Assembly: GCA_020723485.1 (NCBI GenBank)
Contig: DYIU01000005.1
Span: forward strand, 171,603-235,602
Length of the DNA: 64,000 nt
Direction of reading: 5' to 3'
Source of the DNA: Acidimicrobium ferrooxidans
GTDB taxonomy: Bacteria; Actinomycetota; Geothermincolia; Fen-727; Anoxymicrobiaceae
Below the pieces are notes generated by a model. The model saw only the letters and a list, made by a program, of their open reading frames with translations. It was not told the DNA's origin and did no database searches. Shown here piece after piece: positions 61,676 through 62,475 of the stretch; positions within the stretch are counted from its first letter, which is position 1; each line of letters begins with the position of its first letter. A program made the translations under genes and the position numbers.

Positions 61676-61969
61676 ATGATAGAACTGGACTGCCTCGAGC
61701 AGGTCGATGGCGGAAAGAATGACCATGACCTAGTGCTGTTCGCCCTCAGCACCTGCCCGCACTGCCGCAACGCCAGGAACTTCCTGGACAACAACGATGT
61801 GGCATACAGGTTCGTCTACCTGGACAAGCTGGAGGGCGACGAGCAGAAGCAGGTCCTCGACGAAGCATCAAAATTCAACCCGAGGAGGTCCTTCCCCACG
61901 CTGGTGATCGACGATGACGAGGTCCTCGTCGGTTTCACGGAGGCAGACTGGAGGACGAAGCTGCTTTGA
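61676..61969 (+). CDS. Glutaredoxin-like protein (CPHC)
   Basis: LVLFALSTCPHCRNARNFLDNNDVAYRFVYLDKL...RRSFPTLVIDDDEVLVGFTEADWRTKL. Confidence 0.9.
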   Translation: MIELDCLEQVDGGKNDHDLVLFALSTCPHCRNARNFLDNNDVAYRFVYLDKLEGDEQKQVLDEASKFNPRRSFPTLVIDDDEVLVGFTEADWRTKLL

Positions 61970-62475
61970 GCCCGGAGGTCTCGACCGAGGAAATCGAGGA
62001 GGTCCACCGGCGACTCGTCAGTGACGCCGAGGCATCCGGGTATCACATTAACCCGGACGTGCCATTCGCACTGGCCCTTGCCGAAGGGCTTGCCGTCAAT
62101 GCCGCCCGATATGGTTACGAGCTGTGCCCCTGCCGGTTGACCGGTGGGAGCAGAGAGCTCGACATCGACATCATCTGCCCCTGCGACTACAGGGACGCGG
62201 ACCTGGACGAATACGACACCTGCTACTGAGGGCTCTACGTCTCCAGGCGTGTCCTGGAGGGCGAGGCCGAGGTGGCGTCCATCCCGGAGAGGCGTCCGGA
62301 AGAGAGGCCCGTGATGGCTGAAGCCGGTGACAGGCCGGGCCCCGAGGGCTCCGGCGAGATCAAGGTCTGGAGATGCAAGGTATGCGGCTACCTCTGCGCC
62401 AGGGCCGGCCCGCCCGAGACGTGCCCTATCTGCAAGGTCTCGCGCGAGCGCTTCGAGCCGTTCGATTTCCCCTGA
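61966..62475 (+). CDS. Putative selenoprotein: FTR catalytic-subunit-like domain + rubredoxin-like domain, in-frame TGA at 62227-62229 read as Sec88
   Basis: TTG 61966 overlaps the glutaredoxin stop; ELCPCRL...IICPCDYRDADLDEYDTCY[TGA]GLYVSRRVLEG...EIKVWRCKVCGYLCARAGPPETCPICKVSRERFEPFDFP*; ORFs 61966-62229 and 62272-62475 share a frame. Confidence 0.85.
62241..62259 (+). promoter_or_regulatory. Putative bacterial SECIS hairpin for the FTR-like gene
   Basis: CTCCAGG-CGTGT-CCTGGAG: 7-bp perfect stem, 5-nt loop with G at position 2, 18 nt between TGA and loop. Confidence 0.7.

What the first reader, a model, noticed from the sequence alone, without database searches (positions are those of the whole stretch)
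61966..62475. FTR-like/rubredoxin fusion with in-frame TGA at the active-site Cys: candidate selenoprotein
Seen: one reading frame runs 61966-62475 with a single internal TGA (62227-62229) and no other stop. It sits in CPC-X14-CPC-X12-CY[TGA]-GLYVS. Established: FTR catalytic subunits carry CPC...CPC...CHC (or CYC), and the last Cys of that set is one of the two redox-active cysteines beside the 4Fe-4S cluster (Cys87 in the plant enzyme). Inference: TGA encodes Sec at this residue, giving a 169-aa protein with a C-terminal rubredoxin-like CxxCG...CPxC domain. Ordinary callers would truncate it just before Sec and call a false ORF at 62272.
Basis: partly seen in the sequence, partly recalled or inferred. 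Interest (0 to 1): 0.92.

Follow-up and report, generated by a model that had tools for sequence, protein, structure and literature searches.

The report
Selenium-containing ferredoxin-driven disulfide reductase
An anaerobic actinobacterial gene that software would cut in two at a "stop" codon most likely encodes one whole iron-sulfur enzyme whose active site uses selenocysteine in place of cysteine, and the same arrangement recurs in relatives and in other phyla.

Summary
The frame 61966-62475 has one internal TGA (62227-62229), in CPC-x14-CPC-x12-CY[TGA]GLYVS, followed by a rubredoxin module. It is almost certainly a selenoprotein. In 90 homologs that codon is TGA (38) or Cys (52), never anything else, and the Sec/Cys state changed about 12 times on the tree. 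The genome carries selD-selA-selB and a tRNA-Sec. All 19 TGA-bearing genomes sampled nearby have selB, against 6 of 11 Cys-bearing ones. Selection stays purifying after the TGA. A hairpin 18 nt downstream is stronger than the protein sequence requires in TGA copies, much less so in Cys copies. The TGA aligns with the last Cys of plant FTR's CHC motif. The best label is ferredoxin:disulfide reductase (FDR): FTR catalytic domain plus rubredoxin, Tyr for His, closest to PDB 4TPU. A glutaredoxin gene overlaps it upstream in nearly every locus; PDB 7PWE fuses the same two domains. Sec-FTR has been on record since 2008 (two GOS sequences; the curated model is a double-Sec form). What is new is a clade-wide, single-Sec FDR with rubredoxin and a glutaredoxin partner. 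The next gene (CoA-disulfide reductase) also has an in-frame TGA; that family is known.

The parts
61676..61969 (+). Glutaredoxin-like gene (STCPHC active site), overlapping the FDR start by 4 nt; likely substrate/partner of the FDR
   Evidence: Pfam PF00462 E 4.8e-12; matches archaeal-type glutaredoxins 3nzn and 5cax and residues 3-72 of the Grx-FTR fusion 7pwe; found upstream of the FDR in all but one locus examined
61966..62475 (+). Sec-containing ferredoxin:disulfide reductase: FTR catalytic domain (residues 12-96) plus rubredoxin module (residues 135-164), Sec at residue 88
62125..62133 (+). First CPC motif (C54-P-C56): cluster ligand and the solvent-side active-site Cys, by homology to plant FTR
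   Evidence: invariant in alignments; aligns with plant FTR CPC
62227..62229 (+). In-frame TGA = Sec88, at the position of the cluster-side active-site Cys of FTR
   Evidence: TGA in 38 and Cys in 52 of 90 homologs, no other residue; alignment to CHC of plant FTR
62241..62259 (+). Candidate bacterial SECIS hairpin: stem CUCCAGG/CCUGGAG with loop CGUGU, apical loop starting 18 nt after the UGA
   Evidence: folds; stronger than protein-preserving null, p 0.008 for this gene; group test of Sec vs Cys copies p 0.0006
62368..62457 (+). Rubredoxin-like Fe(Cys)4 module (CKVCG...CPIC)
   Evidence: PF21349 E 5.2e-13
62499..63896 (+). CoA-disulfide-reductase-like flavoprotein with its own in-frame TGA at 62625-62627 (SYAG[Sec]GMPYY)
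   Evidence: TIGR03385 E 1.5e-125, below the curated cut-off; TGA conserved in five genomes including this one; the known Sec motif of this family is UGxP

Best explanation
The gene encodes a selenocysteine-containing ferredoxin:disulfide reductase. UGA88 is read as Sec by SelB and tRNA-Sec, helped by a hairpin just downstream (machinery shown; decoding inferred). The protein would take single electrons from ferredoxin through its rubredoxin iron to the active-site [4Fe-4S] cluster, which reduces a Cys56-Sec88 selenylsulfide. Cys56 would then attack the disulfide of the glutaredoxin encoded by the overlapping upstream gene, while Sec88 sits on the cluster side (inferred from FTR/FDR chemistry, not shown here).
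For: TGA or Cys only at this codon in 90 homologs. Full-length continuity with Cys homologs, including 4tpu. selD-A-B and tRNA-Sec present. selB in 19/19 TGA genomes against 6/11 Cys genomes, Fisher p 0.003. Purifying selection downstream of the TGA, pN/pS about 0.3-0.4. Hairpin excess in TGA copies. The same Sec form in Chloroflexota, Thermodesulfobacteriota and a Planctomycetota contig. Glutaredoxin gene upstream in nearly all loci, and a natural Grx-FTR fusion in the PDB. FDRs are known to reduce thioredoxin-type partners (PMC6262447, PMC7278568).
Against: No direct evidence of Se incorporation. By plain dinucleotide shuffling the window hairpin alone is not unusual (z -0.80). Some TGA copies show no clear excess hairpin. 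Three of 18 TGA genomes outside the window's class had no selB hit, though these are draft genomes. Cys copies also show a weak hairpin excess. The electron path and glutaredoxin substrate are inferred.
Confidence: 0.88

Rival explanations
1. TGA is a real stop: the gene has decayed or split into a truncated FTR fragment and a separate rubredoxin ORF starting at 62272.
For: Standard callers would report exactly these two ORFs.
Against: TGA sits at the same codon in dozens of genomes, always replacing Cys; the sequence between the TGA and the rubredoxin (GLYVS...IPERR) is conserved and under purifying selection. A truncated protein would lack the last active-site residue. Complete Sec machinery is present.
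Confidence: 0.03
2. Sequencing or assembly error for TGC/TGT.
For: One base separates TGA from TGC/TGT, and most of the relatives are MAGs.
Against: 38 distinct sequences from independent projects and several phyla carry TGA here.
Confidence: 0.01
3. TGA is reassigned or read through as another amino acid (a genetic code change or leaky readthrough giving Trp, Gly or Cys).
For: TGA is read through in this frame.
Against: The position is Cys in all non-TGA homologs. TGA ends ordinary genes here, including this one and the glutaredoxin gene. A dedicated tRNA-Sec with anticodon TCA and selA/B/D exist, and selB tracks TGA.
Confidence: 0.04
4. Sec is real, but the partner is not the neighbouring glutaredoxin; the enzyme instead reduces a thioredoxin, a low-molecular-weight disulfide, or ribonucleotide reductase through another redoxin.
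For: Methanosarcina FDR reduces a thioredoxin (PMC6262447) and a cited 2015 study links a ferredoxin disulfide reductase to class III ribonucleotide reductase (title seen). In the window's family a CoA-disulfide reductase gene follows.
Against: The glutaredoxin gene is the neighbour shared by all but one locus, and 7pwe fuses the two domains.
Confidence: 0.25

Closest known systems
Methanosarcina acetivorans ferredoxin:disulfide reductase (identified here with PDB 4TPU; Kumar 2015, Prakash 2018)
   Same: Full-length match E 5.9e-54 over both domains; CPC/CPC/CYC motifs; Tyr where plant FTR has His; C-terminal rubredoxin
   Different: 4TPU has Cys where the window has the TGA/Sec codon
Sec-containing FTR of Zhang and Gladyshev 2008 and NCBIfam NF041072 (FtrB_double_U)
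   Same: Sec at an active-site Cys of an FTR catalytic domain, CxU motif
   Different: The curated model is a double-Sec protein of 121 positions; the window protein has one Sec (the first motif is CPC), carries a rubredoxin module, and scores 45 bits against a cut-off of 160
Grx-FTR fusion protein, PDB 7PWE
   Same: Glutaredoxin-like N-terminal domain plus FTR domain with CYC
   Different: All Cys, fused, no rubredoxin; in the window the two are separate overlapping genes
Plant/cyanobacterial ferredoxin:thioredoxin reductase catalytic chain (1DJ7, 2PVD and others)
   Same: All three Cys motifs align; Sec88 falls on the last Cys of CHC
   Different: Shorter spacing before the last motif, His instead of Tyr, no rubredoxin; match of only about 28-32 bits

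Membership tests
Selenoprotein | In-frame UGA at a position occupied by Cys in homologs, with the frame conserved downstream | tested here: met
   38 TGA / 52 Cys / 0 other; purifying selection downstream
Selenoprotein | selA, selB, selD and tRNA-Sec in the genome | tested here: met
   G000:C5 592965-598104
Selenoprotein | Bacterial SECIS hairpin shortly after the UGA | tested here: met
   Group signal clear; for the single gene p 0.008 by the protein-preserving null, but z -0.80 by dinucleotide shuffle; bSECISearch not available
Selenoprotein | Selenium actually incorporated | not testable with these tools
   needs 75Se labelling or mass spectrometry
FTR catalytic subunit family (PF02943) | Profile match and the CPC/CPC/C-x-C cysteine set | tested here: met
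   68.8 bits vs cut-off 22; motifs align
Ferredoxin:disulfide reductase (FDR) | FTR domain fused to a C-terminal rubredoxin, Tyr in the third motif | tested here: met
   PF21349 E 5.2e-13; CY[U]; 4tpu over residues 6-166
Ferredoxin:disulfide reductase (FDR) | Ferredoxin-dependent disulfide reduction | not testable with these tools
   biochemical assay needed
NF041072 FtrB double-selenoprotein | Two Sec residues and score over the curated cut-off | tested here: not met
   one TGA only; 45.2 bits vs 160
Plant-type FTR heterodimer | Presence of the variable (A) subunit | not tested
   no search for FTR-A was made

The most novel reading that the evidence does not exclude
A ferredoxin-linked disulfide reductase has, in a whole class of Actinomycetota and repeatedly in other phyla, moved its cluster-side active-site residue, and not the solvent-side one, to selenocysteine. 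Catalysis would then pass through a selenium ligand or near-ligand of the special [4Fe-4S] cluster, and ferredoxin-driven glutaredoxin reduction in these anaerobes would depend on selenium.
Probability: 0.5. Interest if true: 0.65.

Novelty: new variant of a known kind. Interest (0 to 1): 0.52.

Why it matters
FTR-type enzymes make a two-electron disulfide cleavage from one-electron donors at a unique 4Fe-4S site, and how the cluster-side thiol interacts with the cluster is a central mechanistic question. A natural Sec at exactly that residue, with close Cys sisters in the same genus or family, is a ready probe: Se is visible by spectroscopy and changes redox potential. It also means genome annotations in these lineages miss or split this enzyme, the only FTR-type gene found in the window's genome.

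Tried and rejected
Simple stop or pseudogene, sequencing error and code reassignment were considered and rejected (see rivals). Rfam gave no relevant match around the site. The plasmid collection had no homolog. Filing under NF041072 was rejected because the cut-off and the double-Sec feature are not met. The window hairpin tested alone by dinucleotide shuffling was unremarkable, so the SECIS case rests on the protein-preserving and group tests. A SECIS for the downstream CoA-disulfide reductase could only be drawn by eye (UCAGCGG-CGUGA-CCGCUGA); the minimum-energy fold prefers another pairing. The FDR papers (10.1074/jbc.RA118.002473 = PMC6005431, PMC4697749) are not in the library. No structure prediction was run, since 4TPU matches over the full length. 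A scan of the window for further coding frames interrupted by TGA gave the CoA-disulfide reductase and two ordinary gene junctions.

Full report
OBSERVATION. Window 61966-62475 (+) is one frame with a single internal TGA at 62227-62229 and a TGA terminator; it translates to 169 residues with position 88 at the TGA. Ordinary ORF finding gives 61966-62229 and 62272-62475 as separate ORFs.

WHAT THE PROTEIN IS. With Cys standing in for Sec, residues 12-96 match the FTR catalytic chain (PF02943, 68.8 bits, cut-off 22) and 135-164 a rubrerythrin-type rubredoxin (PF21349, 48.6 bits). The closest solved chain is 4TPU, a 173-aa FTR-rubredoxin protein aligned over both domains at E 5.9e-54, with CYC where the window has CY-TGA. 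A profile of the FTR domain also aligns to the plant and cyanobacterial enzymes (1DJ7, 2PVD, 7BZK and others), placing all three Cys motifs in register; position 88 falls on the last Cys of CHC. From established FTR knowledge (Synechocystis Cys57 and Cys87), that residue is the active-site Cys on the cluster side, and the second Cys of the first CPC (here Cys56) is the exposed one. I identify 4TPU with the Methanosarcina FDR from my own knowledge; the FDR class, its 4Fe-4S active site and its reduction of a thioredoxin are described in PMC7278568 and PMC6262447.

IS THE TGA SELENOCYSTEINE? (a) Homologs: in relatives the gene appears with either one TGA or none, and the codon is always TGA, TGC or TGT. 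In the window's class 27 of 32 genomes have the gene: 19 with TGA and 8 with Cys. A motif scan of one genome per species (85,488 species) requiring TGA at this codon returned 33 loci: Actinomycetota (including Candidatus Solincola), Dehalococcoidia and other Chloroflexota, Syntrophaceae and other deltaproteobacteria, and one Planctomycetota contig. Outside the window's class Cys is the commoner state (3 TGA of 18 in Dehalococcoidia, 5 of 85 in the Syntrophaceae class). Among 90 distinct homologs the residue is TGA 38, Cys 52, other 0. A tree needs about 12 state changes, with at least 4 forced by well-supported branches (the tree is short and poorly resolved). (b) Machinery: selD, selA, selB and a tRNA-Sec with anticodon TCA lie together on contig C5; selD itself contains an in-frame TGA. 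(c) Co-occurrence: all 19 TGA genomes among the relatives have selB above the curated cut-off; of 11 Cys genomes 5 lack it (Fisher p 0.003). Of 18 further TGA genomes, nearly all from other phyla, 15 have selB. (d) Selection: in Sec copies, codons after the TGA show pN/pS of about 0.3-0.4 and a third-position excess of changes. (e) Hairpin: the 42 nt after the codon fold better than synonymous recodings in TGA copies (37 copies, mean z -1.29, 15 with p<0.05) and only slightly in Cys copies (52 copies, mean z -0.47, 4 with p<0.05); difference p 0.0006; an upstream control segment shows no such difference. Related sequences are not independent, so these p values are indicative. In the window the stem is CUCCAGG/CCUGGAG with loop CGUGU, starting 18 nt after UGA; many relatives have CCAGG-AGGU-CCUGG. 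From my own knowledge, E. coli fdhF has an AGGUCU loop at about 17 nt.

CONTEXT. A glutaredoxin-like gene (61676-61969, STCPHC) overlaps the FDR start. The same neighbour lies upstream in essentially all loci from all lineages; only the Planctomycetota contig L077 had none recognisable. PDB 7PWE contains a glutaredoxin-like domain (residues 3-72) fused to an FTR domain (86-192), which independently links the two. Downstream, in the window's family only, a CoA-disulfide-reductase-like gene carries its own TGA at 62625 in SYAG-TGA-GMPYY, matching the known UGxP selenoprotein form of that family. Syntrophaceae Sec forms lack the rubredoxin, so rubredoxin is not required for Sec. The search found a single FTR-domain gene in the window's genome.

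MECHANISM. Shown: the domain set, the motif register, the Sec machinery and the conserved glutaredoxin neighbour. Inferred: UGA88 decoded as Sec; ferredoxin to rubredoxin to [4Fe-4S] electron flow; a Cys56-Sec88 selenylsulfide; Cys56 attacking the glutaredoxin disulfide with Sec88 held against the cluster. Placing Se at the cluster-side position is unusual, since Sec is commonly the exposed nucleophile; it may ease release of the cluster-bound intermediate or resist overoxidation (speculation).

NOVELTY. Sec-containing FTR homologs were reported in 2008 from two marine sequences, one with two Sec (PMC2398784), and are listed with motif CxU and two Sec in a 2026 review (PMC13188914) under NF041072, whose cut-off the window protein does not reach. 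I found no description of a single-Sec FDR with rubredoxin and glutaredoxin partner; the library lacks most subscription journals. Hence: a new variant of a known kind.

Noticed in passing
window 62499-63896, TGA at 62625-62627: The next gene, CoA-disulfide-reductase-like, also has an in-frame TGA at its active Cys (SYAG[U]GMPYY), conserved in relatives L003, L005, L006 and L007; a known Sec family, so two adjacent selenoprotein genes.
   Followed up: partly
L010, L011, L012, L016, L017, L018, L019, L022, L024, L031 (3' part of the FDR gene): Relatives in the Solincola-type family carry two rubredoxin modules that are 31-36 aa identical within each genome (97-100% at DNA level) but differ between genomes, as in concerted evolution of a roughly 126-bp tandem duplication.
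   Followed up: partly
L048 position 1531 (selD of the window's genome): selD has an in-frame TGA in RRAG[U]AAK, so SelD is itself probably a selenoprotein.
   Followed up: no
L052: An Actinomycetota MAG contig carries a Sec-FTR of the rubredoxin-free type that groups with the Syntrophaceae-type sequences on the tree, suggesting horizontal transfer or misbinning.
   Followed up: no
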